A stretch of 64,000 nt of DNA from positions 1-64,000 of the forward strand of contig JAQTYU010000010.1 in assembly GCA_028688145.1 (NCBI GenBank), in the 5' to 3' direction. The position numbers and the translations under genes were made by a program. A model generated the notes under the pieces. It made no database searches. It worked only from the letters and a program-made list of their open reading frames with translations, and was not told the DNA's origin. The stretch is from Thiotrichaceae bacterium (lineage in GTDB: Bacteria; Pseudomonadota; Gammaproteobacteria; Beggiatoales; Beggiatoaceae). Every line of letters starts with the position of its first letter. Position 1 is the stretch's first letter. This document shows positions 1 through 27,156 of the stretch, in pieces.

Positions 1-2450
1 CCATTAAAACCAAAGTCAATGTCGGTACGGTTTTCGTTAGGGTTTAAATGCAGTGGGTTGCCACTGTTTGGAGTCGTGAGTGTAGTCACGCCTGCAGGCA
101 TGTCTACTTGCACTTGATAATCGCCCGCAGGCAGATTGTTGAAGTGGTAAACCCCATTCACGTCGGTGGTCGTGGTTTGGGTGGTATCGTCTGCTGTTCC
201 TAAAACGCCATCGTTGCCTGCACTCTTCAGAGTGACCACTACATTACCAAACAGGGGTTCACCGACTTGATACAAGCCGTCACCATTTTGGTCATTCCAA
301 ACCAAGTCACCGATGCTGCCTTGACCGGGATTGTTATAACCAAAATCAACATCTTGCTTATTTTGTCCCGCGCTTAAAGTTACCGTCGTGCTATTGCTGC
401 CGACCGATTGCAAGCCCGTGGTGGGCGTGACACCTGAGGGCAAATTATTCAGTTGAACTTGATACGTGCCAGCGGGCAAGCTGCTGAAATGATATTTCCC
501 ACTCGCATCGGTAGTGGTGTTATAAACGACATCGTCTGACGTGCCGAGTTTATTATCAGCCCCCGCCCAAGTCGCTTTCACCGCAACATTGGCAAGCCCT
601 GATTCGCTGGCATCTTGCAACCCGTCACTGTTGGAATCCAGCCAGACATAATCGCCAAGACTTGCCGTGCCTGCGGGTTTATAGCCAAAATCCAAAGTGA
701 GTAAACTTTGACCCGCCGCCAAACTCACAGGATTTGCGCTAGAAGGCGTGGTTAAACTCATATTTGCAGGCGGTGTGGTCACGGCAACTTGATAATTGCC
801 CGCTGCCAATCCTGCAAATTGATAGTGTCCTGTGTTATCTGTAATCGTGCTGTAAGTGACATCGTCCGCCGTGCCGAGCTGTTTATCCGCGCCCGCGCTG
901 GTCAACGTTAAAGTAATATTGCTTAAAGGCGTTTCACCCGCATCTTGAATGCCGTCGCCATTGCTATCGACCCAAACATAATCCCCAAGCAGCCCATTAT
1001 TAGGCGCGGGCGGTGGCAGGACAACACTTTCCCCAAAGCCAAAATCAAGGTCAGTACGCGTTTGTCCTGCATTCAAAACAAAAGTCGTGTTTAAACTGCC
1101 CACAGATTGCGAACCCGTGGTGGGCGTATATTGGCTAGGCACATTCATTAATACGACTTGATACGTGCCCGCACTCAATTGGCTGAAATTATATTTCCCT
1201 GCCGCATCAGTGACTGTGGTGAAAACTTTGTCGTCAGCCGTGCCTAATTTGCCATCGCTGCCCGCAAAGGTGGCTTGTACAGTTACGCCACTTAAACCGC
1301 TTTCAGTGGCATCTTGAATGCCATCTTTATTGGTATCAAACCACACATAATCGCCAAACGAGCCATTATTCGCGCTGTAACCAAAATCCACATCTTGCTT
1401 ACTTTGACCGACGGCAAGGCTAATCGTGGCACTGTTGCTACCCACGGATTGCGGCCCAGTGGTCGCAGTCACGCCCGCAGGCAAGCCATTTTCCAGCGTG
1501 ACTTGATAAGTACCCGCTGGCATATCGTTAAAATTATATTTGCCGTTTGCGTCAGTGTTGGAGAAATAGCCTTGGTCGTCCGCAGTGCCGATTTTGCCAT
1601 CCAAGCCCGCCCACAAAGCTTTCACGGTCACGCCGCTGAACCCTGTTTCATTGGCATCTTGAATGCCGTCACGATTCACATCATTCCACACATAATCCCC
1701 AAAACTTGAGATATTCGGAGCAAAACCAAAATCAACGGTATCAATCACTTGGTTCATTGCCAAGTTGACAGGATTATTGCTGCTCGGTGTGGTGAAAGTG
1801 GTGTTATTCGGCGGCGTGGTCACGGCAACTTGATAAGTGCCTGCCGCCAAACTGGTGAAATGATATTTCCCCGCCGTGTCAGTGGTGGTGGTTTGAACGG
1901 TGTCGTCCGCCGTGCCAAACGTGCCGTCTGCGCCCGCATTGGTCAAAGTCACCGTCATATTGGCTAACGGGGTTTCACTGGCATCTTGCACGCCGTCGGC
2001 ATTGGTATCCGTCCACACATAATCGCCAATGCTGCCTTGATGCGAGTCGATATAACCAAAATCGACATCGAGTTTATTTTGTCCGGGCGTTAAGCTGACG
2101 GTGGTGTTATTCGCGCCCACCGATTGCGTGCCAACGGTGGGGACAAAATTCGCAGGCAAGCCCGCGCCCACTGAAATTTGATATTTGCCCGCAAACATGT
2201 TGCTGAACAAATAATGTCCTGTGTTGTCGGTTTTCGTGGTTTGGGTTTGATTGTCTGCTGTCGTGGTGAAATCACCGTCAGGACCTGCCCATAAAGCTTG
2301 TACGCTGACACCTGCTAAACCGGGTTCGCCCGTGGCTTGCACGCCGTCATTGTTAAAATCATTCCACACATAATCGCCTAAACTGCCGACTTGGGTATCT
2401 AAGAAATCATTGCCACTGCTGGTTGCGCCCACGCCCACAGGCGTTGAAAT
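1..2450 (-). repeat. Tandem SdrD-B-like modules at the visible C-terminal end of the giant protein
   Basis: About seven consecutive modules of roughly 320-345 bp (about 110-115 residues) each begin with (L/F)GDYVWxDxNxDGxQDxxE and close with DFGY or DFGF. The module starts lie near 2384, 2040, 1700, 1360, 990, 665 and 315. The repeated Asp/Asn-rich loop is the Ca-binding-like element of the SdrD-B family. The last codons in the window (RTDIDFGFN) are the end of another such module, so the array continues beyond the left edge. Confidence 0.85.
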
Positions 2451-5400
2451 CACATTCAGCGTATTGCTGGTTTTGCCGTCGCGATCATTGGTTGCCACAA
2501 AGCCATTGGGAATGGTTTCCACCACCACATAATTGCCAGCAGGCAAGGTGGTGAAACTGTAATTCCCGCTTGCGTCGGTGGTGGTGCTACGAATCGGTGA
2601 ACCTGTGGGTTTGCCTGTGCCGTCGTTGGCAAATAGTTCAACGGTGACACCTGCCATGCCGTTGTCAGGATCGCTGAATACGCCGTTGGCATTGATGTCA
2701 TTGCGTACTTGCCCCGTGATGGTGCTGACAGGCAAGATTGCTGTGGCGGTGCTGGTGCTGACGAAATCATTTAAGCCGCCCACGCCGTTTTGTCCTGTGC
2801 GCTCGCCTGTGTCAGTTCCCGAAACGCCGCCCGCTGTGGCAACATCAGAACCCGTGGGATTCTTGGTGGTGTCAGCTTTGGGCGTGCCTGTGGTGCCGGG
2901 TAAACTGGTGTAAGTTAAATCAGCGGTATTGTTAAACGGCACACCAATCGAAGTGGAGGTTTTAACCAGCCCTTCCACTTGGAAGCTCAGTTTATTTGCC
3001 GCGCCCGTGGCTAATTTATCAATCCCAATCGAGAGTTTATCGTTGGTTAAATCTTCAGTAATGACCACACCCGCGCTGGTGCTGGGCAATTGAGTGACGT
3101 GTACCAAATCTAATTGGCTGACCAAGTTATCAATCGCGGCAATATCAAAGGCGGTGGTTTGCCCTGTGTTTTCAATGTCAATGCGATATTTGATGGGGTC
3201 GCCAGGATTAATCGGTGCAGTGGTCACGGTTTTAGTCACCACCACTTTCGGTTCAACCACGGCAACGCTGGTATTCGGCGAGCTACCAACTTTAGTTCCG
3301 CCCACAAATAAATCAAAATTGTTGGTTAAGGTGCTGGGTAAAACCGCGCCCGTGTTGTTATTCAAGCCTTGCACTTCGGTGGAATTCATCACTAAGGCAT
3401 TGAATTCAATCACTGCATATTCTTTATCGGCATCGCTGGCATTGTTGACCACATTGCCTAGTTTGAAGAATACGTCGGTGCCGTTAGCGTAAGTGTCATC
3501 TTCTGCCGTAGGGCTGGTTGAAACTGCGGTGTCAATCAGTTTAAAAGTCGGGGTGACATTCGGATCACTCCCCACCACGGCTAAACCTGCGCCTGTTAAG
3601 GTGCTCGAAGTGATGGAACCTGTGTTGGAAACAAAGGCAAGTGTGCTGGTGTCGTCATTTAAGAACAACAAACCTGCGGGCAATTTTTCTTGTAATTGAG
3701 TATTCGGGAACGTGCCTTCAGGAATTTCCACAATCAGGCGATAACGCACGATTTCGCCCACAGCCACATCGGTTGCAGCCCCCGTGCCTGGGGTGTGCGC
3801 TTCAGAAGTCGAAATAATTTGGCGGTCTAAAACGCTGGGTAATAAATGTTCGCCAAAGTTGTACTCTGTGCCCGCACTGTTTGATGGCAACACAATCACA
3901 CTTAATACGTCATTGCTCATCGTGCCGACGGTGCTGCTGGCGGCGGTGGCAAGATTAGTAATTGTTCCGAGGCTGTCTTTACCGTCGGTGAATTTCAGCG
4001 GTTGGGTTTCGGTGAGGGTGTAACCTGCGGCATCACTGGGGCGTAAATTATCAAATTTATACGTGCCATCAACGGCGGTGGTGGTGGTCAGGTTGACGGT
4101 ATTTCCTAAGTCATCTTTACCCGATAAGCTAATGGTGACGCTCTTAATCCCTGCTTCAGTGACGGTGTCAATTAAACCATCGTCGTTGGCATCGTTATAA
4201 ACTGTGCCTGTTAAGCTGGAAAGTAAGATTTCGCCAAAATTATAATTAACGGCGTTGTCGCCCCGAACCAGTTGAATACCTGTGAATTTTTCATTGACAC
4301 TATTGCTGCCCAGCGCACCCGTTGCGCCTGTGCCAAGCGTGTCTTTTCCGTCTTGATAACCCACAGGTTGGGTTTCTTCTAAAGTGTAGCCGTCAAGTGT
4401 GGCAAAGGGGTCATTAATGGCTAAATTGCTGGGCGGCAAGTTGGTGAAACTGTAACTGCCATCAGTAGCCGTGGTGGTGGTTGCAACCACCGTGCCCGCA
4501 CTGTCTTTTAGCGTGATCGTTGAACCCGCAATTGCAGGTTCGCCCGCATCTTTCACGCCGTCGTTATTGTCATCACGATAAGTAAAACCGCTCAATTTAG
4601 TTTGATACACTAAACCTGCATCGACGTTGAGATTGGCTTCACCGATGCCTAACACGATATTGTCGGTTTCGCCCGTGGCAGCATTGGTGACATCGCTGTC
4701 ATTGCTATTAGTGCCGCCGCCCGCTGTCACTTTGGCAGGACTAAATTCCATGCCCGAAGGCAAAGCAAATTTGGCTTGATAAGTTGACGGAGTCAGAATT
4801 TCAAAGAAGTAACTGCCTTCTACACCGTTAATACTATGCGTAGTTTGGGTGCGAACTTGTCCTGTAATGGTGTCGGTTAAAGTGACAGTGACACCATTCA
4901 AACCGGGTTCGCCTGCGTCTTGAATACCATCGGCATTTTTATCAAACCACACCACATCGCCTAAACGGGCGGCGGGATATTCTGCAAAATTGTCTTGTGC
5001 AGAAATGCTGTCTTTATCCAGCGGGAACACGACATGAATGGTGTCATTGATAATTTTGCCGCCCCCATCAACAGGCAAATCAGCGGTACTTGCACCCAAT
5101 GCACCATTGGCTTCTGCGCCCGCGACATCTTGACCATCCGCTAAATCTTTATTCGCAGCATCTTTTAAGGGCTGAGTTTCGGTGATGGTATAGCCGTTCG
5201 TGTCGCTGGGACGCAATAAATCAAATTTATAACTGCCATCAGCGGCGGTGGTGGTGGTTAAATTCACCGCATTGCCGAGATGATCTGTGCCCGTCAAGGT
5301 CAGCGTCACCCCAACCAAAGCTTCTTCGCCCACATCAAACAGGGCATTCCCATTGACATCTTTAAACACAAAGCCACTGGCTTGATTATTATGAATTACC

Positions 5401-17400: not shown

Positions 17401-20400
17401 GTGATATAACTGCCCACGGTGTTTTGTGGGGTATAAATTGAGAAGTCGATATTTGGCTTACTGTTTGCGCCAATTTCAAAATATTGTGAGGCAACCGCCG
17501 TGTTGCTTTCGTCATAACCGCTGACGATATATTTACCCGCTGGTAAATGGTCGTAGCTGTAATTGCCGCTAGCATCGCTGGTTAAGGTGAATTTTAAATC
17601 ATCAGGCGAACCGAAGACGGTATCTAAACCTGCCCAAGTAATATTCACTTTGCCGCTGGGAACGCCTTGTTCAGCCGTGACTTTGGTGTCTAAGAAATCA
17701 TTGCCCGTGCTGTTGCCGCCAAAAGGCAAAGTGACCGCGATTAAATTGCGCCCATTCAGCCCCGAGCCATCTTTATCATTAGTGCTGGTATACGTTGCAG
17801 CGTCGGTTTCACCGACTAAATAATTGCCGGGCGCGCGCCCTGCAAAACTGTAATTCCCATTCGCATCGGTTGTAGTCGTGGCAACAGCGGTGGTTTCGCC
17901 CGCGTCTAAAATTCCGTTGGCATTGGTGTCGGCGTAAAGCTTAATCGTGACCCCAGAAATTCCATTTTCAGGCTCAGTAATATTGCCGTTGGCATCGACA
18001 TCGAAGCGCACTTGTCCACTGATTGCGGTGGTGCTGGCAGTTTGTGCGGTGTCAAAGAAATCATTGCCCGTATTATCCGTTGCAGAAGCCAGATTCACTG
18101 CAATTTGATTCAAGGTATTATTGCGAATGCCGTCTAAATCATTGGTGCTGCTGTAAGTTGCAGGGTCAGTTTCGACAACGACATATTTACCTGGGCTGAC
18201 ATTTAAAAAAGCATAGCTGCCATCCGCAGCTGTGGTGGTGCTTGCCAGCGGGCTACCAATCGGTTTACCCGTGCTGTCATCGCGATACAAGGCAACTGTC
18301 ACCGAGCCAATGCCAACTTCCGCACCATTTACGCCCCCATTGGCATCCGCATCGTTATAAACTGTGCCGCGAATTGCCGCAGGTAAATTGCCTGCAAGAT
18401 TGGTGTCCAGAAAATCGTTTTTGACGCTGTCTTGCCCTTTCACCAAATTAACGGAAATTTGATTGTCATTGCGCGCATCAGCATCCATCGTGCTGCTGTA
18501 GTTGCTTGGGTTAGTTTCAACAAGCACATAATTGCCGACAGGTTTTGAGGCGAAGCTATAATTTCCGCTACCGTTGGTGGTGGTGGTGGCAAGCACTGCG
18601 CCCGTGCGATTTCCTAAAGCATCGGCGGCATATAAATCGATGGTGACTCCAGAAATGCCTGTTTCCGTGCTGTCATACATATCACCGTCAGCATCAGTGT
18701 CATTGCGCACTTGCCCTGAAATATTTTGAGTAACACCGACCACGCTGGCATTGGTGTCTAAGAAATCATTGTTTGAACTGGTGCTGCCTTTGGCGAGCCT
18801 GACTGCAATTTGATTGAGCGTATTTGCACCCGAACCATCGCTGTCATTGGTGGTGGTGTAAGTTGCAGGGTCAGTTTCGACCACGGCATAATTGGCAGGT
18901 GCGAGATTGGTGAAAGCGTAATAGCCCGAACTATCGGTGGTCGTGGTGGCGAGCGCGCTACCAATGGGTTTGCCTGAAGTATCGGCGAAATATAGGCTCA
19001 GACTGACCGAGGCAATACCTGGGTCAGACACCGTGCTCATTAAACCATCCGCATTCACATCATTGCGAACTTGCCCACGAATTGCGCCTAAGCCTTTAAC
19101 CGTGTCTTTGTCGGTGTCTAAACCCACGCCGCCGCCGATTAAATAATTCCCGCGCATCCCAAAATCTTGGGTTAAATTGCTGCCGCCTGAAGCAATGGTC
19201 ACGCTGTTGCTGGTAGAATTGGTGGCAGTGAATCCACTGGGCACAGTGACCGTGACTTTATAAGTGTCAGGCATGATGCCTTTGAAACTATAAATGCCTG
19301 TGTCATCAGTGACGGTGGTGTAATTCAAATCGTCAGCCGTGCCAAAAGTATTGTCAGCTCCTGCATCGGTCAAAGTCACGGTGATGCCTGACAAAGCAGG
19401 TTCGTTCGCGTCAATTGCCCCATTGGCATTGGCATCTAACCAAACCGTGTCGCCAATGGTGGCATAATTACCGACGGTATTTTTAACGTGTTTCCCAGCG
19501 GCATCGCTGAAAGTAACGGGGAAATCAACCGCACTGTTATAAACGCCGCCCGCCACCGTGACATCTTGCGTGCTATAAACGCTGTTATCCGCATTTAACA
19601 CGCTGACCCGATATTTGCCGCCCGGAATATCGGAAAGCTTGTAATTACCACTGCTATCGGTGGTCACGGTGATGACGGAATTATCACTGCTGGTGCTTAA
19701 ATTACCGTCTAAGCCTGCCCATTCAATTTTAACTTTGGCATTAGCAACGCCCAATTCGCCCGCGTCTTTCGTAGCATTTTTATTGATGTCAAACCAAACG
19801 GTGTCGCCTAAACTGCTGGTTGCAATCGCGCCAAAATCTTTATCGGTGAGATTTTGCCCTGCAATCAAATCAAGCGTGTAAGACTTTGCTCCGGGCGTGC
19901 CCACGGTTAATCCAAAATTGGTACTGAGAGCAGTGTCATCCACTGCAACTTTATATTTTCCCGCAGGCAACCCGGTGAAATGGTAAATCCCATCAGCGGT
20001 GGTTGCGGTGGTGTAAACTTGATTATCCGCAGTCGTGGTTAAATCACCATCTGCACCCGCCCAAGTTAAGGTAACAGGAACACCGACTAAACCAGGTTCA
20101 CCCGCATCTTGTACCCCATCTTTATCCACATCAAACCACACACGGTCGCCTAACATCCCGCTGCCTTGTAACCATGTGAGTTTGGCAGAGTTGTTCAGGG
20201 TCGTGCCTTGTTGATTACCTGGGGTGTCTAATACCATCGCGGTGTAACGAATGGTCACTGTTTCATTATTACTATTGTCACGGCTGGGATTCAGAATTGT
20301 CCCTAAATCAAACAAAATTTGCTGATTACTGGTTTTGCCATCGCCCGTAATCGATAAGCCATTGTTCAATTGGGTCAGGTCTAATAAGGTGCCCAAACCA

Positions 20401-23400
20401 TTGGTAATTTGATTGCCTGGTGAACCACTGGTGGTGACACTGTCAATGCTGACAAAGCCTAAACCTAAATCTAAAGTATCTAAAACACGGGCATTCAGCG
20501 CAGTACCTTCTGCTAATTTCACCACTAAATCATAAGTGACTTTTTCACCAATAACTGCTTGAGTAGTCGCAGTATTATTTGTTCCCGTAATTTCCGTACT
20601 GACTAGATTCTTGGCTAACTCGGCGGTCGTGCCTGATGCATTGTTTTGTACGGTGAAACTGTCATTGCTTTGTAAATCAGGATAATTGCGTTCGCCCGTT
20701 TGCGTGCCACTTAAACTGCTGTAATCGGTGACTTGCACGGTGTTGGTGATTTTTTCACCCGCGATTAAGTTCTGGCTAACGCCTGTCACTTCCAAAGTCA
20801 GGGTAAAGGTCGCAGTCGCACCTTGAGCAAATTGGGCAGCTTTATAATAAACCGTGTGTCCTGTCGCATCATAGGTTGCGGTGAATGGCGAACCCGTCGA
20901 AACCCGTACCACTTTGGCATCAGCCGCATTAAACTTGGTGGGGTCGATAACATCTTGAATCACTACATCAAAGGCATCAGAATTGCCCGTGTTGGTGACA
21001 GTGAGCGTGACATTAATCGTATCCTGCGCGTCGGCGCGGGTTTGAGTAATATCTTTGGTAATCGTCAGTTGTGGTTCGATAATCTTGGCGGTGACGGTGT
21101 TAGAAGTCACGGGCGCAGTGGCATCCGTAGGCACGTCAATCGTGGCGGTATTTTTCAGCTCTTTGTCTTTGACATTATCAATGCGATCGACCACTTGCGC
21201 TTGATATTGAACCACAAAATAATTGTCATTATTTTTAGCAGCGGTGTCGCTGGTGGTGGCGGGTAAAACTATATCTCCGAAAAATACCGTGAAAGCCTCG
21301 CCATCTTTCGTGCCGCCCGAATATTTCAGCGAATCCCCATCTGCCAAAGTGCTAAGGGATGAGTCACCCAGTTTGATACCTTGAATTGTGCCAGTGAAAT
21401 CACTGTAACCTGTAATGCCTGTGGTTACCAATTTCACCGAATTCGGTACTAAAATCATGCCTGAGGGCATTAAATCTTTCACCACTAAACTGGGGACATC
21501 ACCCTCGGGCAAACGCACAGTGAGTTGATAAGTCGCAATTTCCCCAATCGCCAAGGGTTCAGCTTCCCCTGTGACCACGTTAGTCAAGGGGTCGGTAGTA
21601 ATCACGCCACCGCTGCTGCCCGCCGTGGTGGAGCTGTCGCTGCTGGTGATTTTTTTCGAGACGATGCTCGGGCTTGAAATCACGGTTTCAGCTTTGTCTT
21701 TCCAGTTGGGATTATCCTGTCCTGCGGTTAAATCTTTGCCGTTTTCATGGGCAGAATATTCGAGCAACTCTGCGGTGTTATCAATCACTGTGGCGGGCGG
21801 AATCGTGGCACTAACTTTCAAGTCATAGGTGATAACCACCACGTTAGAACCTGAAGTCGTTTTAGCCCCCGTATTGTCGTAACCCGCATCTAATGCGCCA
21901 TTGGCTTGGTTTGTCCCTAAGTCAGTAATCCGAATCCCTTCACCGAACAAATTGCCCGTGAAGTTCAAAACTGTTCCATCACCCGTTTTAACGACCACAT
22001 TCGCGCCATTTGCCCCGATACCCGTTAAATCAAAGCCTTTTTGCAAAGTATCTTTAATCAACATATCGTGGGCAGCTTGACCGCCCGTATTTTCAAGTGT
22101 GATGGCAAACTTGACGATGTCGCCTGCATCCAAGCCTGAAACGTCGTTATTGACAGCCACTTGATTGGCAGGTGCGGCAGCATGAATCAAATCACTGGTG
22201 ATAATCCCTGTGAATGAGCTGCCCAAAGTACCTGCTGCACCGAAATTATCTTGCCCACCCACAGAAGGCGTAAAGTGACCACTGGTGCTGGTGGTTGCCA
22301 CCACACCTTTTGAAACTTTGATGTCAGGTTCAACAACCAGAATTTGTACAATTTTGGAGGTGCTGGTGCTGTCAGATTTAGTGTTGCCGTAAGAAGCTTC
22401 TGCTTGGTTCGTTAAGAAAAAGCCATCATGCGCGAAAGCTTCGTCCGTGGCTTCCACCGTGATCAACACGTCAATCGTCATGCTTTGGGTGGGATTGGTG
22501 TCAAACTTCCCAAAATCTAAAGAAACTGTGTTTTGATTGGTATTTTGAGTAATGGAAGGGACTGTTGTATCCGAATGAAAGTCGGGGCTGGTTTTAATAA
22601 TGTGATATTGATCACTGGGACCATAAGTGATCGCATTCGCAACAGGTAACGCGCTTGCAGAGTCATAAACGCCTGCGACATAAGGCTTAATGCTTGAGGT
22701 ATCTAAGGGCTGTTTGTTTAAATCAAACACAGGTAAGGGCAAGTAATCGGTCAACTTCATGCCTTCGGTATCAGCGGCGGGCATGGTCAAGGTTAAACGA
22801 TAGGTGACTAAGTCCCCAGCAGTAATCCGAGGCGGCAAATCATAATTCGTTTGTCCATTAATCGCGTAAATATTTTTGGCTAATTCTGGCGCAGGAATGC
22901 TCAGTTCTGCCGCGCTGGTATCGGCTTCAAATGCAGTTTGAGTGGGATTTTTAGTGGTGTCATGGGCGGCATTGCCATCAGCAACGTCATTGGCTTGCAG
23001 CGCGAGCGCGGTATAAGTCCCATCCGTGTTTAATAAATTGCCCTTCACTTCGACGTTATTATTTAATTTATCGAGCGTGTCAACGCTGGCATCGCCCGTA
23101 TAGCCCGCATCTAAATGCACATCACTGAATTGTTCTTGAACCACGGTGCGATATTTAATTGTTACCGTAGTTCCGGGGGCAATACTGGTTTCATTTGGCG
23201 ACAAAAGGGTGTTTTCATTACCGCGTAATGAACCATCCGTAATGCCTTGCGCTTGTAATTCTGCGGAAACATCAAAAACTAAAGTGGTTGAACCGTCTTT
23301 AGGATTTGGATTTGAAGTGGGATTATACGTGCCCACCGCGCCTGTGGTGGCGTTACGAATGCCATCAGCCTGCGCATTCACCGTCCCTGCAAAATGATTG

Positions 23401-25721
23401 GTTGCCAAGCTCCCAAAAGATACTTCGCCTGCCGTCGAATTACTGACCGCAGTAGTCGTATGATTGGTAAACGAACCGCCCCCAAAAGCTACGGTTGTTC
23501 CCACAGCCACGCTAGATTTAGGCGCGTTGATGGTAATTGTTGGCGTGAAACTGGTGTCAAAACGTTGTCCGTCTGAAAATTTATCGGTGACAACAATATT
23601 ATTTAAAGCAAAATAATCAGAGACTTGAATATCTAAACTGTATTCAACGGTTTTCCCGGGCAGCAGGGTTTTATCGGCTTCAACCACTGCCGCGCCTTTC
23701 TGAATCGCGACTGAACGATCGTTTAAAACGGCAGTCGCCGTGGCAGGCGTGCCGCTCACGGTGGGATTGTGCGTGCCTGTCACTGCGTCATAATCGGCTG
23801 AAGATAAATAAGTGGCTGTGACAGGTCCTACCGTATTGGTAGAAATCACATCGTCACCCGTTTTGGGATCAATTACGGGGTGAGTTTGTGGAGGATTTAC
23901 GGTATTGACGGTGTAATCTTGTTCATTATATTCAGGGACATAAAAATCATAAGTAATGGTGATGTCATTACCGATTTTGCCTTGTGGCGGGGTATTTAGT
24001 TGTAATTTAAGAAGATTTTGCTCGCCCGTGCCTTGGGGCGCAACAGTCGATGGGGTATTAATTAAAGTGTAGGGAATTGCCGCGCCTAAACTGTCTTTAA
24101 CCTGTAAATTGCCTTGATAAATAATATTGTCGGGCAACACATCAGGAATCACTAAATTCGTCAGGTCAACTAAATTCGCAATATCGACGTTAATCGTGTA
24201 ACTACGCACGAAGTTTTTACCCGTGGCAGTTTCTCCCTCGGGCGCATTCACCACTTTTGAAGTGGTCAGGATTTTGGGCGTAATCGAGCTGGTACTGGTT
24301 GCACCGACTAAGGGCGTGTCACTACCAGGATTATCTAAAGGATCAACCCCAAAGCGAAAACCACCCGTCACTTCAAAAGGCATCGCAACATCTGGAATTG
24401 AACCTGTGGGATGTAAGGTAGTGCCAGGAACTAAAGCGGGGAAGGGATTTTCAATCTTATCGGTTTCTTCTAACACATTACCTTTGAAGACAATTTCAGC
24501 ATTGGGCTGATTGGGCACAAAGCTCCCGAAAGGCAATTGCACTAAATACCATTTGTCGCCAATGTTTGGGGTATTAGAAACCGCATCGCCAGGTGTGGTA
24601 AACGGCGCGCCATAAGGATGTTGAGCAACCACAGCCCCCGCACTGTCTACCCAACGCGTGCCATCCCAAGTTCCAACCACTTTCCACAATGACGCATCTA
24701 AAGCCGTATCAAAATAGGTCGGCGAGCCAACTTTTACGCCCGCAGGAATGCGTAAATCAAAGAAAGGACCATACCCAACTTCAGTATTTACCGATGAGGT
24801 GTTGTCGAAAACAACTTTAAAATCAAAGCTCTCATTCAACATATTGGTGGCAGGTAAACTTAAAGTTGCCGTCGCGGTGGGCGCGAGTAACACTTCAACA
24901 GGCGTACTTAAAGTTTGGGTGTGAATTGCACCCGTTTCTTGTTCGAGCTGCCAATTGCCGCCTAAATCTTTACTGCCCGTTTGGTCAGTCGAAGCCGCAA
25001 CCTGTGCGCCTGTCAACGCGCTCAATTCCTGGGTAAATTCAACCCCAACATCTGTCGCGGCAACATTACAACCATAAAGCAGAATATCTGCGCCTTGGCT
25101 TAAACCCAGTTTCCAAGTGCTCACGGTTTGCGTAACTTGGGTATTGCCTTCCAAGGCTTTTAAATCAAAGGTATTTGTTCCCAGTTGCAAACTGCCATCG
25201 GTGGCGTGGGAAAGAATATGCACTGCATCGACTTTATGCGTGGCTTTGTCATAAGCCGCTAAAGTATCAGAGATTTCTTGTACCGCATCATTACTGTGCC
25301 CAATCACCACAACTTTCAAATCAATGCCTTCAGGATTTTGATTTTGATAAGCATCGACTAAATTTTGATAATTACGAATGCCCGCATCGACAAACACAAT
25401 TTCGATACGTTTCGGTTCAGCCGTGGAGGTTAGCGTGGTGGGAGTATTCAGGACATCGGCGGGCGGTTCAGTGACTGCGGTTTTATCAGAAGCGGGGAGA
25501 GCTATGTCCGTCGGGGCTGTTGTTGCCGCGAGTGTCGGCGAGAATGTTGTATGCAAATCGCTAAGTGTGCTGTCGTGCGTGGTGTCAGCGGGCGGAGTAT
25601 CTAGTGCTGCGACCAGAGGATTCGCACTGAATAAGACACGTTCTTCTAAACGTTCAAACAGAGGGGCATACGTGGATTTAGCCGCAGCGGGCAACACGGT
25701 CGTTTTAGAAGGCTTTTTCAT
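1..25721 (-). CDS. Giant repetitive surface protein with DUF4347, DUF11-like and SdrD-B/Cna-B-like repeats (3' end beyond left edge)
   Basis: The minus-strand frame opens with ATG at 25719-25721. Codon phase was checked at about 23.9, 20.1, 15.3, 10.1, 7.1, 0.35 and 0.03 kb and is the same everywhere, so at least 8573 codons are visible and no stop is reached. Residues 1-45 hold a LEPR-like leader (FERLEERVLFSANPL). About 103-276 match DUF4347 (VHILSHATDG, DILLYGCNVA). About 278-1845 are DUF11/isopeptide-D2-like modules, recognisable by VVEPxLxITK and YxLTVxLPEG. About 1848-3690 are mostly Cna-B/SdrD-B modules (DxNxDGxxDxxEPGLxxV ... DFGY). The two types then alternate, ending in SdrD-B units at the left edge. 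Families of this kind are large extracellular adhesins or matrix proteins, usually exported by type I secretion; the C-terminal signal is not visible. Export route and ligand are inference. No gene for the exporter lies in the window. Confidence 0.93.
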   Translation of the reverse strand, partial: MKKPSKTTVLPAAAKSTYAPLFERLEERVLFSANPLVAALDTPPADTTHDSTLSDLHTTFSPTLAATTAPTDIALPASDKTAVTEPPADVLNTPTTLTSTAEPKRIEIVFVDAGIRNYQNLVDAYQNQNPEGIDLKVVVIGHSNDAVQEISDTLAAYDKATHKVDAVHILSHATDGSLQLGTNTFDLKALEGNTQVTQTVSTWKLGLSQGADILLYGCNVAATDVGVEFTQELSALTGAQVAASTDQTGSKDLGGNWQLEQETGAIHTQTLSTPVEVLLAPTATATLSLPATNMLNESFDFKVVFDNTSSVNTEVGYGPFFDLRIPAGVKVGSPTYFDTALDASLWKVVGTWDGTRWVDSAGAVVAQHPYGAPFTTPGDAVSNTPNIGDKWYLVQLPFGSFVPNQPNAEIVFKGNVLEETDKIENPFPALVPGTTLHPTGSIPDVAMPFEVTGGFRFGVDPLDNPGSDTPLVGATSTSSITPKILTTSKVVNAPEGETATGKNFVRSYTINVDIANLVDLTNLVIPDVLPDNIIYQGNLQVKDSLGAAIPYTLINTPSTVAPQGTGEQNLLKLQLNTPPQGKIGNDITITYDFYVPEYNEQDYTVNTVNPPQTHPVIDPKTGDDVISTNTVGPVTATYLSSADYDAVTGTHNPTVSGTPATATAVLNDRSVAIQKGAAVVEADKTLLPGKTVEYSLDIQVSDYFALNNIVVTDKFSDGQRFDTSFTPTITINAPKSSVAVGTTVAFGGGSFTNHTTTAVSNSTAGEVSFGSLATNHFAGTVNAQADGIRNATTGAVGTYNPTSNPNPKDGSTTLVFDVSAELQAQGITDGSLRGNENTLLSPNETSIAPGTTVTIKYRTVVQEQFSDVHLDAGYTGDASVDTLDKLNNNVEVKGNLLNTDGTYTALALQANDVADGNAAHDTTKNPTQTAFEADTSAAELSIPAPELAKNIYAINGQTNYDLPPRITAGDLVTYRLTLTMPAADTEGMKLTDYLPLPVFDLNKQPLDTSSIKPYVAGVYDSASALPVANAITYGPSDQYHIIKTSPDFHSDTTVPSITQNTNQNTVSLDFGKFDTNPTQSMTIDVLITVEATDEAFAHDGFFLTNQAEASYGNTKSDSTSTSKIVQILVVEPDIKVSKGVVATTSTSGHFTPSVGGQDNFGAAGTLGSSFTGIITSDLIHAAAPANQVAVNNDVSGLDAGDIVKFAITLENTGGQAAHDMLIKDTLQKGFDLTGIGANGANVVVKTGDGTVLNFTGNLFGEGIRITDLGTNQANGALDAGYDNTGAKTTSGSNVVVITYDLKVSATIPPATVIDNTAELLEYSAHENGKDLTAGQDNPNWKDKAETVISSPSIVSKKITSSDSSTTAGSSGGVITTDPLTNVVTGEAEPLAIGEIATYQLTVRLPEGDVPSLVVKDLMPSGMILVPNSVKLVTTGITGYSDFTGTIQGIKLGDSSLSTLADGDSLKYSGGTKDGEAFTVFFGDIVLPATTSDTAAKNNDNYFVVQYQAQVVDRIDNVKDKELKNTATIDVPTDATAPVTSNTVTAKIIEPQLTITKDITQTRADAQDTINVTLTVTNTGNSDAFDVVIQDVIDPTKFNAADAKVVRVSTGSPFTATYDATGHTVYYKAAQFAQGATATFTLTLEVTGVSQNLIAGEKITNTVQVTDYSSLSGTQTGERNYPDLQSNDSFTVQNNASGTTAELAKNLVSTEITGTNNTATTQAVIGEKVTYDLVVKLAEGTALNARVLDTLDLGLGFVSIDSVTTSGSPGNQITNGLGTLLDLTQLNNGLSITGDGKTSNQQILFDLGTILNPSRDNSNNETVTIRYTAMVLDTPGNQQGTTLNNSAKLTWLQGSGMLGDRVWFDVDKDGVQDAGEPGLVGVPVTLTWAGADGDLTTTADNQVYTTATTADGIYHFTGLPAGKYKVAVDDTALSTNFGLTVGTPGAKSYTLDLIAGQNLTDKDFGAIATSSLGDTVWFDINKNATKDAGELGVANAKVKIEWAGLDGNLSTSSDNSVITVTTDSSGNYKLSDIPGGKYRVSVLNADNSVYSTQDVTVAGGVYNSAVDFPVTFSDAAGKHVKNTVGNYATIGDTVWLDANANGAIDANEPALSGITVTLTDAGADNTFGTADDLNYTTVTDDTGIYSFKGIMPDTYKVTVTVPSGFTATNSTSNSVTIASGGSNLTQDFGMRGNYLIGGGVGLDTDKDTVKGLGAIRGQVRNDVNADGLMSTVSDPGIASVSLSLYFADTSGKPIGSALATTTTDSSGYYAFTNLAPANYAVVETDPATYTTTNDSDGSGANTLNQIAVRLAKGSTSSNNDFLDTNASVVGVTQNISGQVRNDTDADGDMYDSTETGISGVTIDLYAADALGNRTGAVLATTTTNGSGNYSFASKPVGNYVLVETNPSNYSSTMDADARNDNQISVNLVKGQDSVKNDFLDTNLAGNLPAAIRGTVYNDADANGGVNGAEVGIGSVTVALYRDDSTGKPIGSPLASTTTAADGSYAFLNVSPGKYVVVETDPATYSSTNDLDGIRNNTLNQIAVNLASATDNTGNDFFDTAQTASTTAISGQVRFDVDANGNITEPENGISGVTIKLYADTNANGILDAGETTAVATTTTDANGNYSFAGRAPGNYLVGETDAATYTSTNDKDGSGLNGRNLIAVTLPFGGNSTGNDFLDTKVTAEQGVPSGKVNITWAGLDTVFGSPDDLKFTLTSDASGNYSYDHLPAGKYIVSGYDESNTAVASQYFEIGANSKPNIDFSIYTPQNTVGSYITVGDTVYVDSNANGTQDGSELGIPNVTVKLTWAGADNIISTTDPSKNIDNVVFTTTTDASGKYKFTGVPSGNYQVTVDAATIPAGLKLGTTGLPAPFSAAFGDNLLTKDIPLVGSATLNVTVWNDADASTTVNGAEGRISNVPITVIWDKNGDGFGGTDDVTYNVFSPASGNYVFNNMPSGSYKVSVPNFNMTTNAINPNGEQTVSLVVGDNTTVAFGYKGTYSLGDLVYFDSDDNKTYGGTDSGLPNVTVTATWGGPDNNLATTGDNVDYVTKTDSVGHYQFYGLNAGNYSVAVTTSELPSALQAGRTTPTTVPLLLNLTADNLTADFGYKGNYIPPGSVDPISYGASIGDTVWYDKDADGTQDAGEAGMAGVTVILEQMAADGTTVLSSRITSTDANGNYLFDGLKGNLLGGQMYRVSVDPSTIPLSWSVSAGTGKYNPGTTTFVADLTLAYREVKIFDSTAHVVDADFGYTSAITISGTGKIGDMVYQDVDASNSYTAGDTGIVNANVTLKWAGLDNTFNTADDRSYVAVTDSTGKYQFNNLLEGQYTVTVDTATVTSTSSTATSLNYTLTPGQVVDTADFGFKAATNSIGDLVWADSNKDGVKDVNETGLANVEVKLQWAGSNGTFNNTDDRYYTTYTDENGLYKFSNLPDGNYKVSVSNVGTYNATTNPSSGITTAAGNVIAISGLTGGTVGTLTNGTADFGFAGGNAVGDYVWNDLNGDGKQDANEPGLPGVTVTLLWGGPDKDLSTTADNQTFTTVTDTPTNTTGGHYDFSGLPDGPYQISVGTAPYGMTLTTPTIQNSTFTLTGQQRLADRDFGYQGTGSASGIIWRDTNGNASKDGTEQGYAGMPVELFFKGADGLYNTTDDIYYATTSDANGNFSFSGLPMGDYHVLLLNSPQSTSTNNNPLDFTLSTGTPTKTNINTGLTTRDVDTPTVSAANIAVIEPVVGITKDVKVQSTLGTDNNPVTEGDAGDYVVYTITVKHPNTTDPDAYEVNVTDSLPIDYFYGASITAVTDSAGTFTLGSNPFTLTDSVLKSGNQYGGIVKTTTPFDLPQGREITITITGRLDNNVTPKQLVVNAAQATWTSLDGTQTNRSSFVEDVDRERTGGGDAVDDYLVSDDAVVKITSLKPEKVIIKTSEAGTNDTATNTNTLDALDTTQELTYIDSLGVASYQSSLQTGVTVETSNPETNDHIGNVKATIGEVVRYRLLTYLPEGSLSNVSIQENLPAGLKFLNDGTAKIAFINDSATNNITLTDATLSTAIVTNVTTAYTPTVAIPSANIVATAPTGITTTDTATDVYFTLGNIANSGLNSGKEYVVIEFNVLVTNETANQAYNNATGTATPTVRDNTFTVFVNNDTNLTTKSNVSTVEVVEPVITTLGLTQSTIVPKPDGTDTITYTLTFTNTGSSPAYDVNVTDILDKTPGLSQLKYTNSSFTTTDGATLVSTTPSDLNSNATDGNEQVVLVFDRVNVGETVTITLTADIKTSVVPNEVIYNNASLTYSSLPGAGTTGNATGSTAGTPASADGERDGTNGVGGLNDYVAAATATTVTSENYLPLVDKSLAATSEADTPNTPAPVKVAIGEIVTYRLVTTLYEGTVKNLQIQDRLPAGLQYINGSAKIAVVGDNPSTFSSSDAALNALAGLKVTGDRTTVPTAFLPDANVSKSSASNIDTYVPGDDIFFKLGNFTNGDNDANNEFVIIEFQVVVTNTKTGGDTNVTGTSRNNVYTVLADTNNDGKPGYISTIQDSNRDGVKGAGENAIAADDTDNDQTTLPSPTPTSPTSSIGSADSINASLTVVEPSLSITQTVSPVTPTDGKDTVTYTFTITNATGANVSPAYDVLLTDLIDNDLTLKTITDSLTTGVNTSTGQNLQYTIPRIGVGETVTVTVTTEVNGTVSAGEQISNTVHGVYSSLPGTNGTGSVTPGAAGSATGERDGSGSPTTTALNNYFIDSTVTHDIAVPLIDKLDLTKTTWTIGEPLDFYIHVTLPEGVTENLVLKDNLPPGLTPTSYEIITSGSSVGTTPIKTVNFSGTGVIAGGQVNVVAGMDGQDLILIPVGTVTTNSDNDTTNNSFLVKVTAYVTDNTATTNGKVLTNQGELDYQIPTTNATSDPSTGTAQVLTDNTTVTVVEPKLDIVQSIITPTTAIDAGDTVTYRITISHTGTSTSSAFDLNLSDVIPATLSGVTLNSATVSDGATSSNVISELTLTGNSLTTTGDIDLLWHSNGTNSQQLVIEVTGKVVDSITPNTTVNNAPSVTWTSLNGVITEERDGDAGHSGADNYTTNTTTPFTTPNTFSVTKLVNNPVSAKAAIADTVTYELDVTILEGTTNSLNIVDHLPAGMTYVAGSAQVSDANGMTISGFNSSIAGQNLTLTATSILNPSVIDNANTVDSKTFKITYQATVDAGNAISTSLDNDADATAANGLSDPNNTATVKVVEPELIITKTSPTVKADARDIVTYTVAVSNDSSVTADRGDAFDLIVTDPLTSDLILQVGTVQVSLDGGTTFSATPAGGVITKGNTAGDTTIEVKLDQYSTTAVQDIRIKYDAQIKDPTLPKATVTNTATIVWDGHAGAGGKSETKNDPHTITIHDNQVTGFVYEDIDDNAVFSTVAGDHPLAGVTLALTGTDHLGNAVNLTTTTLADGSYKFTLLRPSDAAGYTITETQPVTPIKYYDGKETAGAETNGVLGNSTASLPASTNDIINVKLPTGKDSISSANNFGELKATNLSGKVWEDNDNDGVIDAGEVGIDGVSVTLAGTDYRGNAVLINKTTAGGGLYSFDDLAPGTYSVTEAQPLITGGFTVDYYDGKDAVGTGANTAGTKVAFNTTTKDDVVNNIVLKSGETAINYNFGELKPVEISGFVYNDLNNNATKDSGEPPIEGTTVTLTGSYTNGEGTVVPVTQTVTTDTTGAYKFTALPPATYTVTETQPIDFNDGLDKLGTGATAAGTLGNDVFTNVKLDGGSVASNYNFGEVLKLDIVKSLFNTSETSTSNAPAEVTIGEEVTYALKVTVPEGVDISNLQVKDLVPAGMQYKSHTLVTTTAASSDYSSTNLLTADFNGTVPSPTKSGGASSGDPVIFDFGTVKATKDGDFTNNTFLINVTATVLDVVGNKGVPVASANTLSNTATLDVTTDSVTLQTTPVVDVKVVEPNIVFTKAITEAKADADQLVNIVLTAQNTGTSNAYEVVVEDILDPTKFDKTTINFGVAGTDYPTGFTPNFDTTTGKLSYSGGQIDKGATATFDFQIKTMGGTNATAVAVNSTITNTATVPHTTTLPNVVTGERDEPQQTSSDSLVIHTNQISGFAYEDIDDNAVFSTVAGDHPLQNVSLTLTGTDHLGNAVSLTTTTAADGSYIFDLLRPSDANGYTITETQPDKPTFPSKYYDGKETAGAEANGALGNSTADIPAVDNDTIHVVLPLDKDSISSANNFGELKATSLAGKVWEDNDNDGVIDAGEAGIDNVSVTLAGTDYRGNAVLINKTTAGGGLYSFDDLAPGTYSVTEAQPLIAGGFPVDYYDGKDAVGTGANTVGTKVAFDNTTKVDVVTGVVLKSGETAINYNFGELKPVEISGFVYNDLNNNATKDSGEPPIEGTTVTLTGSYTNGEGTVIPVTQTATTDNTGAYKFAALPPASYTITETQPTDFNDGTDKLGTGATAAGTLGNDVFTAVKLDGGSTAINYNFGEVLKLDIVKSLFNTSENSTLNTTTPAEVTIGEEVTYALKVTVPEGVDISNLQVKDLVPAGMQYKSHTIVTTAAASSDYSSTNLLTADFNGTVPNPTKSGGASSGDPVIFDFGTVKATKDGDFTNNTFLINVTATVLDVVGNKGVPVASANTLSNTATLDVTTDSVTLQTTPVVDVKVVEPNIVFTKAITEAKADADQLVHITLTAQNTGTSNAYEVVVEDILDPTKFDKTTINFGTAGVDYPTGFTPNFDTTTGKLSYSGGQIDKAATATFNFQIKTMGGTNATAVAVNSTITNTATVPHTTTLPNVVTGERDEPQVSGSDSLVIHNNQASGFVFKDVNGNALFDVGEEALVGVTLTLTGTDHLGNAVNLTTTTAADGSYKFDLLRPSDTNGYTITETQPLKDAANKDLADGQDVAGAEANGALGASTADLPVDGGGKIINDTIHVVFPLDKDSISAQDNFAEYPAARLGDVVWFDKNADGIQDAGEPGLNGVTVTLTDTITGQVRTQTTHSINGVEGSYFFEILTPSTYQAKFALPSGMEFSPAKVTAGGGTNSNDSDVTNAATGETDNIVLGIGEANLNVDAGLVYQTKLSGFTYRDDNNDGVKDAGEPAIAGSTITLKDSAGTVVATTTTATDGSYSFTNLPPSNLAINDPFATLDGYTLEETQPVGYQDGKDTLGTGATGALGSNSVNEKFTGIQLVRGDNAVNYNFGEILLSSLTGTVYNDANDDGLIDTVTEAGIKSVTISLSGKDDLGNTVNLTTTTAVDGTYKFDNLRPSDAAGYTLTETQPLKFTDGKDSLGTITNLATAASSTVGTMSNDVLSVIVLPSNSAGTEYNFGEHLLPSVLDRQIISTSEAHTPGTGAATDVAVGEIVRYRLIVEIPEGTFPNTQLQEKLPAGLLFLNDDTSTLAFVSNTGSITSSTLTGAGLAVVGSDPNVTPTFKLIDTAVSTSPTAEDDTYANGTDVFFKLGNVVNNASDADKEYAVIEFNALVMNSTEVQGLNNNTGAVLPSTLTNNFDLFVGGTKVGSSPNTSVAVVEPKVVVTKTVTTAPINPGDPIKYRIDIENTGQTTAFDIAAIDNLVSQLDLVHVTQLPSTSAGVVITEDLTNDKLSIGIDKLATGAANKLSFQVEGLVKTSTSIGVPFNNTADLTYTSLPGTTGTPKADTTKNPTGSDVATAGGVSGTDTGERTGQNGVGGLNDFVSTSTATAILPVSTITGQVRNDINANGVFSDPDNGMAGVTVELFANDGTGKPTGSPIRSTTTDASGNYSFTTLPAGNYVVVETIPNGFVATNDRDGKTSNTLNVISTPVGVGATSSGNDFLDTQVGSLGDYVWNDFNNDGVQATGEPGLAGVSVQALWAGPDGDFTTTADNQTQTTKTDNTGHYLFSNMFAGKYQISVGAGLPANFVPTVGTQSVGANNTTVSLTPGQNKLDVDFGYIDSHQGSIGDYVWTDTNADGVQDASETPLANMTVTLTNAGADGTFGTADDTVQTTTTDTAGKYHFTSLAAGTYQVAVTTPPNNTTFTTPSSNNPVNLAMNQVIDTVDFGFAPNISSFGDYVWNDVNRDGIQDANETGFSGVTVKALWAGLDGKIGTADDQGYFSNTDANGKYNFNDMPAGTYQVTLENGLPAGVTATTGPQSVGSNSATISLAVGQSKQDVDFGYSANNGSFGDYVWFDTNKDGIQDATESGLSGVTVQATFAGSDGKLGTADDKVFTTVTDAAGKYNFSQLSAGTYQVVLMNVPSQYTPTTGSQSVGSLNTTFVLNAGQTRTDLDFGFGESVVLPPPAPNNGLLGDYVWVDSNGDGIQDAGETPLSNITLTLTSAGADKQLGTADDVTYSTITDNTGHYQFAGLAAGNYQVAVTTPPANMSLTTPSSANPVSLAAGQSLLTLDFGYKPAGTASLGDYVWLDSNSDGLQDASESGLANVAVKATWAGADNKLGTSDDVVYNTTTDASGKYHFSSLPAGTYQVQLNNLPSGVTPTTGLQSVGSNSTTVTLSAGQNKQDVDFGYNNPGQGSIGDLVWNDQNGDGLYQVGEPLFGNVVVTLKSAGNDGVLGTADDTTQTTTTDVNGVYHFNNLPAGDYQVQVDMPAGVTTLTTPNSGNPLHLNPNENRTDIDFGFN
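4990..9260 (-). repeat. Two-copy tandem duplication (about 2.13 kb) inside the giant gene
   Basis: Copy 1 (about 5002-7137) and copy 2 (about 7138-9258) align with an offset of about 2120-2136 bp, close to 709 codons. A stretch of about 170 bp near 5806-5979 is essentially identical to 7933-8106. A third partial copy of the boundary appears just above 9259. Each copy encodes one DUF11-type unit plus several SdrD-B-type units (YNFGEL, FVYxDxNNNATKDSGEPP). The low divergence points to recent in-frame duplication. Confidence 0.85.
25555..25721 (-). other. LEPR-like N-terminal leader and Thr/Ala/Pro-rich linker of the giant protein
   Basis: The first 45 or so residues read as a basic start (MKKPSKTT), then FERLEERVLFSANP. 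This resembles the short LEPRxLLSADP motif found at the N-terminus of very large secreted proteins that also carry DUF4347. A Thr/Ala/Pro-rich linker follows. No classical Sec signal peptide (hydrophobic core plus AxA) is seen. That agrees with non-Sec export, but export was not shown. Confidence 0.6.
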
Positions 25722-26397
25722 GGCGAATACCTATGGTGATAGATACTCCACTAAATTGGTACATGTTTAATGCGAGGGACTAAATCCTACCAGACCTAGC
25801 AGAGTCTTTAAAGTCAACTAATAATCTTGAATTATCAGTTATTTAAATCGGTTATGTAGGGGTAAACTCAACAACGCAGTGAGATTAAATACCTGTGGCG
25901 AGACATACCCAGTATCTATCCATCGCAAACTTTGAAGAGAAAATTGCTTCTGAAAAAAGCTAATTTAGTTTGGATGAAGGAAAAACAATAGCTGATTTTA
26001 TGCAAGGCTTATGCCTGTGAACATAAAAATAGTCGTTCTGGAAGAGCTAATAGGCTAATTATTAGCAGGCAGGGTGATGCAAGACAATTGCAATTGCCAT
26101 GCGTTAGAATATCCCCATGCCATCCAACTTTAATTTCCATATTTTATTGATAATATATGGAAAATATAACTTCAAATCGGGAGTATTTTTGAACTAAATC
26201 TACACTCGGTACTGTCCGCAAAATTTAATCCAATTCATTTTTCAAATATGTAATTATTTGAAATACGGTATTTTTTTAACGACTAACGGTAGGTTATTAA
26301 CTTGTGATTATATATTAGATAACCAATGGTTTTGTAGTAAAATTTATTTTATCAGTAGTGCTAACTATAGTAATACCTAATCAATTATTGGGATTGA
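25722..26397. other. AT-rich spacer upstream of the giant gene
   Basis: No convincing gene is seen. The stretch from about 26130 becomes strongly AT-rich. A perfect 7-bp hairpin GCTAATA/TATTAGC with a 7-nt loop sits at 26046-26066, and a TAATCAA/TTGATTA hairpin sits near 26378-26400. The spacer must hold the promoter of the giant gene. On the minus strand the region 30-80 bases before the ATG contains a TTGACT box, but no well-spaced -10 box could be matched to it. Confidence 0.5.
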
Positions 26398-26478
26398 TTA
26401 AGAGTTATGCAGTTGAATTTAAGGGATTATAAGGTTTTTTAAATTAATATGTTATTAATTCAACGGCGTAACTCCTAA
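26398..26478. repeat. 81-bp MITE-like element with 22-bp inverted ends
   Basis: The left end at 26398-26419 and the reverse complement of the right end at 26457-26478 agree at 19 of 22 positions (core GAGTTAyGCmGTTGAATT). The 37-bp middle is AT-rich and has no coding capacity. The size, the imperfect inverted termini and the position between genes fit a miniature inverted-repeat element or a solo remnant of an insertion sequence. The parent element is not in the window. Confidence 0.6.
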
Positions 26479-26598
26479 TTGACAAAGAAATCTATATCCC
26501 ATATTAATTATATTGAAATAGAGCGATTGCGAACTCGCAGTTCTAACTCTTTCCGCATTGCGCCCTGCTTCATTTAATCGACGTTCAAACATTCTCAT
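26455..26598 (-). pseudogene. Short 47-codon ORF after gspH; likely remnant of a gspI-type gene
   Basis: The ATG overlaps the gspH stop (ATGA), the usual translational coupling of pseudopilin genes in a type II secretion operon. The first residues (MRMFERRLNEAGRNAER) could be a pseudopilin leader, but the expected GFTLLEV segment never follows. The frame instead enters AT-rich DNA and stops inside the right end of the 81-bp inverted-repeat element. I infer that the original downstream gene was broken by rearrangement near 26548. It could also be a small unrelated peptide or simply untranslated tail. Confidence 0.4.
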
Positions 26599-27149
26599 TT
26601 CGGATCATCCTGTTTAATCTGAATTTCCCCCAGCAAATTCGCAATAATGCGATATTGTGGTAATTGCGCCTCGTTTCCCGAAGTTTTTGCACGCAAAGTC
26701 AACGTAAATGGGGTCATTTCGCCACTGGAAAGGATTAAGATTTGAGGACGATTTTTCTCTTTTTCATTTTTAGTATTTTTATCGTTGGAAGGCAGCAATT
26801 TCAAGCTTTCCCCGTCCAATTCCAAACTCGCTTCCATCGATTCTGGGAAACTACGCGGGTGCAAAGTATCATCGCGCTTGCTAAAACGTGTCCATTCGGG
26901 CGGTGACAAGGTGAAAAACTCATAACCCGTGGGCTGAAAACGTACCCCATATTCTTTAGTTTGCAAAATCGCCTCTTCACGCGCCAACTGCAACACGGCT
27001 TGCACCCGCCGCGCTTCTTGCGAGAGCACCCGCGCCTGTCCCCCGTCGCCCAATTTCAAGCTGGCAAAGCTTAAAATAATGCCCATCAATAAGACGACGA
27101 CTAAGACTTCAAGCAGGGTAAAGCCTGAATTTTTACGCATAAGCTGCAT
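26595..27149 (-). CDS. GspH/FimT-type pseudopilin
   Basis: This 184-residue protein has a short basic leader and the type IV prepilin cleavage site G|FTLLEVLVVVLLMGII. A hydrophobic helix and a GspH-like beta domain follow (LQLAREEAILQTKEYGVRF near residue 50). Such proteins are minor pseudopilins of the type II secretion system or FimT-like minor pilins, processed by PilD at the inner membrane. A second ATG nine bases in (27140) gives MRKNSGF and is an equally good start. The gene lies 7 bp after the CheW-like gene and is probably in its operon. The rest of a gsp operon (I, J, K) is absent; only a 47-codon remnant follows. Confidence 0.82.
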   Translation of the reverse strand: MQLMRKNSGFTLLEVLVVVLLMGIILSFASLKLGDGGQARVLSQEARRVQAVLQLAREEAILQTKEYGVRFQPTGYEFFTLSPPEWTRFSKRDDTLHPRSFPESMEASLELDGESLKLLPSNDKNTKNEKEKNRPQILILSSGEMTPFTLTLRAKTSGNEAQLPQYRIIANLLGEIQIKQDDPK

Positions 27150-27156
27150 TAAAATC

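What the first reader, a model, noticed from the sequence alone, without database searches (positions are those of the whole stretch)
1..25721. Single open frame of more than 8573 codons covering 40 percent of the window
A protein of more than about 850 kDa is among the largest bacterial polypeptides. It combines a LEPR-like leader and DUF4347 with dozens of DUF11-type and SdrD-B-type modules in alternating blocks. A matrix or sheath role in a filamentous or aggregating bacterium is plausible. Frame phase was checked at seven points and agreed. The C-terminal export or anchoring domain lies beyond the edge.
Basis: partly seen in the sequence, partly recalled or inferred. Interest (0 to 1): 0.75.

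Follow-up and report, generated by a model that had tools for sequence, protein, structure and literature searches.

The report
Giant surface protein with caspase-like N-terminus
The window holds most of a real gene for a protein of more than 10,000 amino acids, probably exported to the surface of a sulfur bacterium related to Thiomargarita, and almost its only cysteine lies where caspase-like proteases have their active site, close to the start of the protein.

Summary
The open frame is real: 3..25721(-), 8573 codons, no stop, no N. It ends only because contig C17 ends in repeats. The genome has one LEPR start, one DUF4347 and one matching C-terminal domain, the last at the end of contig C24, so the gene very probably continues there: at least 10,073 codons. 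A single-contig relative has an unbroken 9210-codon homologue with the same partner gene, so this is no assembly artefact.

Architecture: LEPR motif, DUF4347, a conserved N-terminal region, then 44 SdrD-B, 12 DUF11 and 10 isopeptide-D2 domains, and a C-terminal domain unknown to Pfam, NCBIfam and PDB. A lipoprotein OmpA-TolC fusion gene sits beside a giant gene in six genomes and occurs almost only with the C-terminal domain (Fisher p=1.7e-5).

New: DUF4347 models as a caspase-like fold (Tce1 Z 14, CHAT Z 10.9). All 11 LEPR-DUF4347 giants examined keep exactly its one cysteine in the stretch held; 18 sequences (81,104 residues) hold only three others. Best reading: a type I-exported surface fibre with a caspase-like, possibly self-processing N-terminus. 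Export route and activity are inferred.

The parts
3..25721 (-). giant ORF, 8573 codons seen; very probably continues on contig C24 (L027:17837-13335, minus strand, 1500 codons to the stop)
25599..25661 (-). LEPR-type leader (residues 21-41, LFERLEERVLFSANPLVAALD), no Sec-type hydrophobic signal
   Evidence: NF012209 at 21.9 bits, cut-off 17; only one in the genome; hydrophobicity scan
24906..25400 (-). DUF4347, caspase-like domain (residues 108-272)
   Evidence: PF14252 2.2e-43; model pLDDT 77.8; Foldseek and VIA-align hits Tce1, CHAT, caspases, C11 peptidase
25206..25208 (-). His172, candidate catalytic His just after strand b3 (HILSHATDG)
   Evidence: 16 of 16 homologues in A1; strand ends; Asn in one distant contig of the viral collection, L144
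25068..25070 (-). Cys218, candidate catalytic Cys just after strand b4 (LLYGCNVA); only cysteine in the 8573 residues
22842..24869 (-). conserved N-terminal region (residues 285-960), mostly without Pfam or NCBIfam match, 32-38% identical in five relatives
20190..22820 (-). isopeptide-D2 / DUF11 block 1
   Evidence: own HMM map; DUF11
14589..20156 (-). 16 SdrD-B-type domains in a row
9690..14561 (-). DUF11 / isopeptide-D2 block 2
   Evidence: TIGR04226 5 stretches
2904..9623 (-). mixed block with 10 SdrD-B domains and three D2-DUF11 pairs
5388..9635 (-). in-frame tandem duplication of 704 codons (copies about 7524-9635 and 5388-7523), 90.6% protein and 86.8% DNA identity
3..2723 (-). 8 SdrD-B domains up to the contig edge
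25722..26594 (-). 873-bp intergenic region upstream of the gene, no Rfam match, promoter-like sites not above chance

Best explanation
The gene encodes a secreted surface fibre of more than 10,000 residues. It is probably exported C-terminus first by a type I pathway: the genome's LssB-type ABC transporter, its single strong HlyD-type adaptor, and the OmpA-TolC fusion channel encoded beside the gene. The unnamed C-terminal domain would be the export signal. The chain of SdrD-B, DUF11 and isopeptide-D2 domains would form a long rod, stiffened by calcium and isopeptide bonds. The N-terminus leaves last; its LEPR motif would hold the fibre at the cell surface, and the adjoining DUF4347 domain is a caspase-like cysteine-protease fold that could process the leader or release the fibre. 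Shown here: the gene, architecture, relatives, partner gene, predicted fold of DUF4347 and its conserved His and Cys. Inferred: joining of the two contigs, export route, anchoring, protease activity and its target.
For: Unbroken 9210-codon homologue in a single-contig genome without N, OmpA-TolC gene 88 bp downstream. One LEPR, one DUF4347 and one matching C-terminal domain in the window's genome. C-terminal domain conserved in 10 sequences, down to a TTTQ-type tail, not found in 366 of 369 gammaproteobacterial genomes drawn for the test. OmpA-TolC in 7 of 8 genomes with the C-terminal domain and 0 of 17 without it, beside a giant gene in six genomes. Lipobox at its N-terminus. LssB ABC 994 bits, HlyD 396 bits. 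No Sec signal. Near absence of cysteine. DUF4347 fold and conserved His and Cys; the DUF4347 protein Tce1 is described as a putative cysteine protease (PMC13323088).
Against: The C17-C24 join rests on uniqueness, repeat similarity and the layout in relatives; the contig ends share no exact word of 31 bases. The ABC and HlyD genes lie on other contigs and may serve other substrates. G024 lacks DUF4347, so that domain is not needed for the fibre. G004 (87% complete draft) shows no OmpA-TolC; in G009 and G024 it is unlinked. No RTX repeats, the usual mark of T1SS giant adhesins. Activity of DUF4347 is unproven even in Tce1.
Confidence: 0.6

Rival explanations
1. The giant protein is a plain structural matrix or sheath protein and DUF4347 is a structural or binding relic of the caspase-like fold without enzymatic role.
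For: G024 has a complete 7455-codon member without DUF4347; one distant DUF4347 has Asn in place of the candidate His (L144).
Against: The Cys is kept in 16 of 16 family homologues and is the one cysteine kept in every LEPR-DUF4347 giant examined, while the rest of the protein is almost free of cysteine.
Confidence: 0.25
2. DUF4347 is an effector domain carried on a long arm: a contact-dependent cysteine-protease toxin against prey or grazers, rather than a self-processing module.
For: Its nearest solved relative, Tce1, is a type VI effector; long arms that present effectors at the tip are known in other systems (own knowledge).
Against: DUF4347 sits directly behind the leader, so in a C-first export model it would be cell-proximal, not at the tip; no immunity gene was recognised beside it (not specifically searched).
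Confidence: 0.12
3. The long frame is inflated by assembly duplication or by misjoined repeats.
For: The contig breaks within repeats.
Against: Single-contig relative with 9210 codons; N-free members of 4450, 5324 and 7455 codons in other genera; the big duplicate has dS 0.50.
Confidence: 0.03

Closest known systems
LEPR-XLL / LEPR-8K giant proteins (NF012209), e.g. the Vibrio sp. VB16 protein of about 8000 aa
   Same: N-terminal LEPR-type motif, very great length
   Different: the Vibrio protein ends in RTX and serralysin domains (PMC10868602); ours has no RTX array and a different C-terminal domain linked to an OmpA-TolC gene
LapA/BapA-type giant T1SS adhesins (own knowledge)
   Same: huge acidic cysteine-poor repeat protein; LssB/LapB-class ABC and HlyD adaptor in the genome
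   Different: no RTX repeats, no LapG protease in the genome; N-terminus is LEPR plus DUF4347
Tce1 (PA0256) of Pseudomonas aeruginosa, DUF4347 T6SS effector
   Same: DUF4347 fold and conserved His and Cys
   Different: small injected protein (310 aa), not a module of a giant fibre
MSCRAMM SdrD and related Gram-positive adhesins
   Same: SdrD-B-type repeats
   Different: far below the SdrD model cut-off, no LPXTG anchor at the C-terminus, Gram-negative export genes
Giant1-5 of Apilactobacillus kunkeei (PMC12863079)
   Same: 3000-8000 aa extracellular proteins with a long internal repeat region and conserved C-terminal segment
   Different: N-terminal signal peptide and a beta-solenoid domain in Giant4; no stated relation to LEPR or DUF4347 in the passages read

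Membership tests
LEPR-XLL domain protein (NF012209) | LEPR motif near the N-terminus over the curated cut-off | tested here: met
   21.9 bits against cut-off 17; 28.3 bits in genome search
DUF4347 (PF14252) | profile match over the gathering score | tested here: met
   148.3 bits against 24.6
Caspase-like (clan CD) fold | structural match to clan CD members | tested here: met
   Z 14.0 Tce1, 10.9 SAVED-CHAT, 8.2-9.2 caspases, 8.7 C11 peptidase; model of moderate confidence, C-terminal 29 residues poor
Caspase-like (clan CD) fold | His just after b3 and Cys just after b4 | tested here: met
   model strands 61-67 and 104-113, His at 69 and Cys at 115 of the model
Caspase-like (clan CD) fold | peptidase activity | not testable with these tools
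   needs biochemistry
LapA-type T1SS adhesin | RTX repeats near the C-terminus | tested here: not met
   no Pfam match in the C-terminal 225 aa; GG.G.D count 1 in 8573 and 0 in the last 1500 residues
LapA-type T1SS adhesin | LapG-type protease in the genome | tested here: not met
   no PF06035 match in G000
LapA-type T1SS adhesin | T1SS ABC, adaptor and outer-membrane channel in the genome | tested here: met
   that they export this protein is not shown
MSCRAMM SdrD | full model score and LPXTG anchor | tested here: not met
   NF012181 172.5 bits against 2500; no LPXTG at the C-terminus
SdrD_B domain (PF17210) | profile match over the gathering score | tested here: met

The most novel reading that the evidence does not exclude
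A class of giant Gram-negative surface fibres that carry their own caspase-like protease at the cell-proximal end, in place of a separate LapG-type protease: the DUF4347 Cys/His pair cuts near the LEPR leader to mature or release a fibre of up to about 10,000 residues, exported through a dedicated peptidoglycan-bound OmpA-TolC channel that recognises a new C-terminal signal domain.
Probability: 0.25. Interest if true: 0.78.

Novelty: new variant of a known kind. Interest (0 to 1): 0.58.

Why it matters
DUF4347 carries no function in Pfam. The near absence of cysteine makes its one kept cysteine stand out and turns the question into a single-residue test. The C-terminal domain and the OmpA-TolC fusion give a candidate cargo-and-channel pair for export of 0.5-1 MDa proteins in a sulfur-bacteria family whose sheath and aggregation proteins are little known.

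Tried and rejected
Assembly artefact or chance frame: rejected. LapA/LapG release: LapG absent, RTX absent. Exact overlap between the C17 and C24 ends: a shared 21-mer but no shared 31-mer. Known family for the C-terminal domain: no PDB sequence match up to E 10, no Pfam or NCBIfam match better than E 0.026, so its Ig-like look is only a hint (Big_13 E 0.076). Papers on DUF4347 or LEPR in Beggiatoaceae: none found in the library. RNA families or tRNA genes in the window: none. Defence-system models: none on DUF4347; on OmpA-TolC only the generic OmpA/MotB part. A wider 'every DUF4347 protein has one cysteine' does not hold: the roughly 2000-residue DUF4347 proteins of G002 and G057, which lack the LEPR-type start, have many. 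Searches failed for technical reasons.

Full report
What is there. The minus-strand frame 3..25721 is open for 8573 codons from an ATG, without ambiguous bases. The window is the left end of contig C17 (115,386 bases) in a 3.63 Mb, 31-contig, 99.9% complete assembly, so the frame is cut by the contig end. Searching the genome with the last 500 residues gave, besides the frame itself, one other site: the right end of contig C24. There a frame of 1500 codons runs in from the contig edge to a stop. It begins with the tail of a SdrD-B repeat very like the last ones in the window, has 10 SdrD-B and 2 DUF11 domains, and ends in a distinct domain. The genome has exactly one LEPR motif, one DUF4347 and one such C-terminal domain. 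I therefore take the two as one gene of at least 10,073 codons; the piece between them, at least most of one repeat, is unassembled. The join is an inference.

Not an artefact. Relatives in the same family carry the same kind of gene. G041, a single-contig 4.27 Mb genome, has 9210 codons without a break or N; G024 7455, G009 5324 and G019 4450 codons without N; G009 has a second of 10,711 with a scaffold gap. The largest duplication inside the window gene is an in-frame 704-codon tandem pair with 90.6% protein and 86.8% DNA identity, dS 0.50, dN/dS 0.12. G041 and G010 compared at their two ends give dN/dS 0.10-0.11. The gene is old and under purifying selection.

Whose it is. Two relatives can be named through contigs of identical length that hold the same gene: G016 matches Ca. 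Venteria ishoeyi HSG18 and G024 a Thiomargarita MAG. The window therefore most likely comes from the same family, commonly called Beggiatoaceae (inference).

Architecture. LEPR-type leader without a Sec-like hydrophobic stretch; DUF4347; a region of about 680 residues, mostly without a Pfam or NCBIfam match but 32-38% identical in five relatives; then alternating blocks of isopeptide-D2/DUF11 and SdrD-B domains. With C24 the count is 44 SdrD-B, 12 DUF11 and 10 D2 (own HMMs; Pfam and NCBIfam agree in kind). The protein is acidic, pI 4.1. The last 165 or so residues form a domain conserved in 10 sequences (LPPLPI.PIYSG...D.GGNWL...RTYF.P...QLFFS...TTTQ), with no match in PDB, Pfam or NCBIfam. 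It was not found in 366 of 369 gammaproteobacterial genomes; the three that have it are in this family.

The caspase-like domain. AlphaFold2 on DUF4347 (four sequences; mean pLDDT 77.8, last 29 residues poor) gives an alternating alpha/beta domain. Against PDB its best match is Tce1 of P. aeruginosa, itself a DUF4347 protein (Z 14.0, 2.8 A over 153 residues), then the CHAT part of a SAVED-CHAT filament (Z 10.9), then caspases and a C11 peptidase (Z 8-9) (Foldseek). The sequence profile also finds Tce1 at E 0.013. The Tce1 paper names it a putative cysteine protease with His186 and Cys240, and reports no toxicity for Tce1 in yeast. In our model His172 follows strand b3 and Cys218 follows strand b4, the clan CD arrangement (clan knowledge is my own). 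Both are kept in 16 of 16 family homologues; one distant contig has Asn for the His.

The cysteine pattern. Over 18 giant-protein sequences or pieces, 81,104 residues, there are only three cysteines outside the DUF4347 YGC site: two in the C-terminal part of the window's own protein and one in G024, which lacks DUF4347. Each of the 11 sequences with both a LEPR-type start and DUF4347 has exactly one cysteine in the stretch held, and it is this one. Other genes in the window average 0.94% cysteine, so some 760 would be expected. Scarcity of cysteine is usual for exported repeat proteins (own knowledge); keeping just this one speaks for a catalytic role. It does not prove activity. Shorter DUF4347 proteins without the LEPR-type start (G002, G057) have many cysteines.

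Partner and export. Beside the C-terminus on C24 lies a gene for a lipoprotein with an OmpA-type peptidoglycan-binding domain and a TolC-type channel domain. Among 25 genomes of the family tested for both, full-length OmpA-TolC is in 7 of 8 with the C-terminal domain and 0 of 17 without (Fisher p 1.7e-5; relatedness of genomes not corrected for). It is downstream of a giant gene in G000, G010, G041 and G006, upstream in G019 and G016, and unlinked in G009 and G024. The genome has one LssB-type ABC above the cut-off on C30 (994 bits) and one HlyD-type adaptor above the cut-off on C11 (396 bits), the latter directly behind a GGDEF-EAL response regulator and a hybrid kinase. A type I route through the OmpA-TolC channel is the simplest reading. 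LapG is absent, so a LapA-type release by LapG is not available; a built-in protease next to the leader is an attractive but unproven substitute. G024 shows that the domain can be missing.

Verdict. Observation confirmed. The kind (giant LEPR surface protein) is known; the variant (no RTX array, new C-terminal domain with an OmpA-TolC partner, and a caspase-like domain holding the one kept cysteine) is, as far as the library and databases here show, undescribed.

Noticed in passing
window 25722-26594: An 873-bp stretch without a long ORF upstream of the giant gene; no Rfam family, promoter-like sites not above chance.
   Followed up: partly
L129 9669-18461 (contig C11): The genome's only strong type I HlyD adaptor gene overlaps the end of a GGDEF-EAL response regulator gene by one base, behind a hybrid histidine kinase and a phosphonate-binding-type protein; a possible c-di-GMP link to type I export.
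   Followed up: partly
window 58953-63998: A hybrid sensor kinase of more than 1682 residues with at least five PAS domains, GAF and three receiver domains, cut by the window end.
   Followed up: no
window 26595-27657: A GspH/FimT-type pseudopilin gene and a weak CheW-like gene upstream of the giant gene, same strand.
   Followed up: no
L027 10206-10760: A secreted CAP/SCP-domain protein gene downstream of the OmpA-TolC gene.
   Followed up: no
L062 and L063, G024 giant gene: A complete 7455-codon member with the LEPR leader but no DUF4347; the part after the leader aligns to the part that follows DUF4347 in the others, as if the domain were a removable cassette.
   Followed up: partly
L098 and L100 (G053, G054): Another LEPR subtype (LALEPRILFDAAAVL) with DUF4347 and again a single cysteine in the 6255 and 3022 residues held; no full-length OmpA-TolC in these genomes.
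   Followed up: partly
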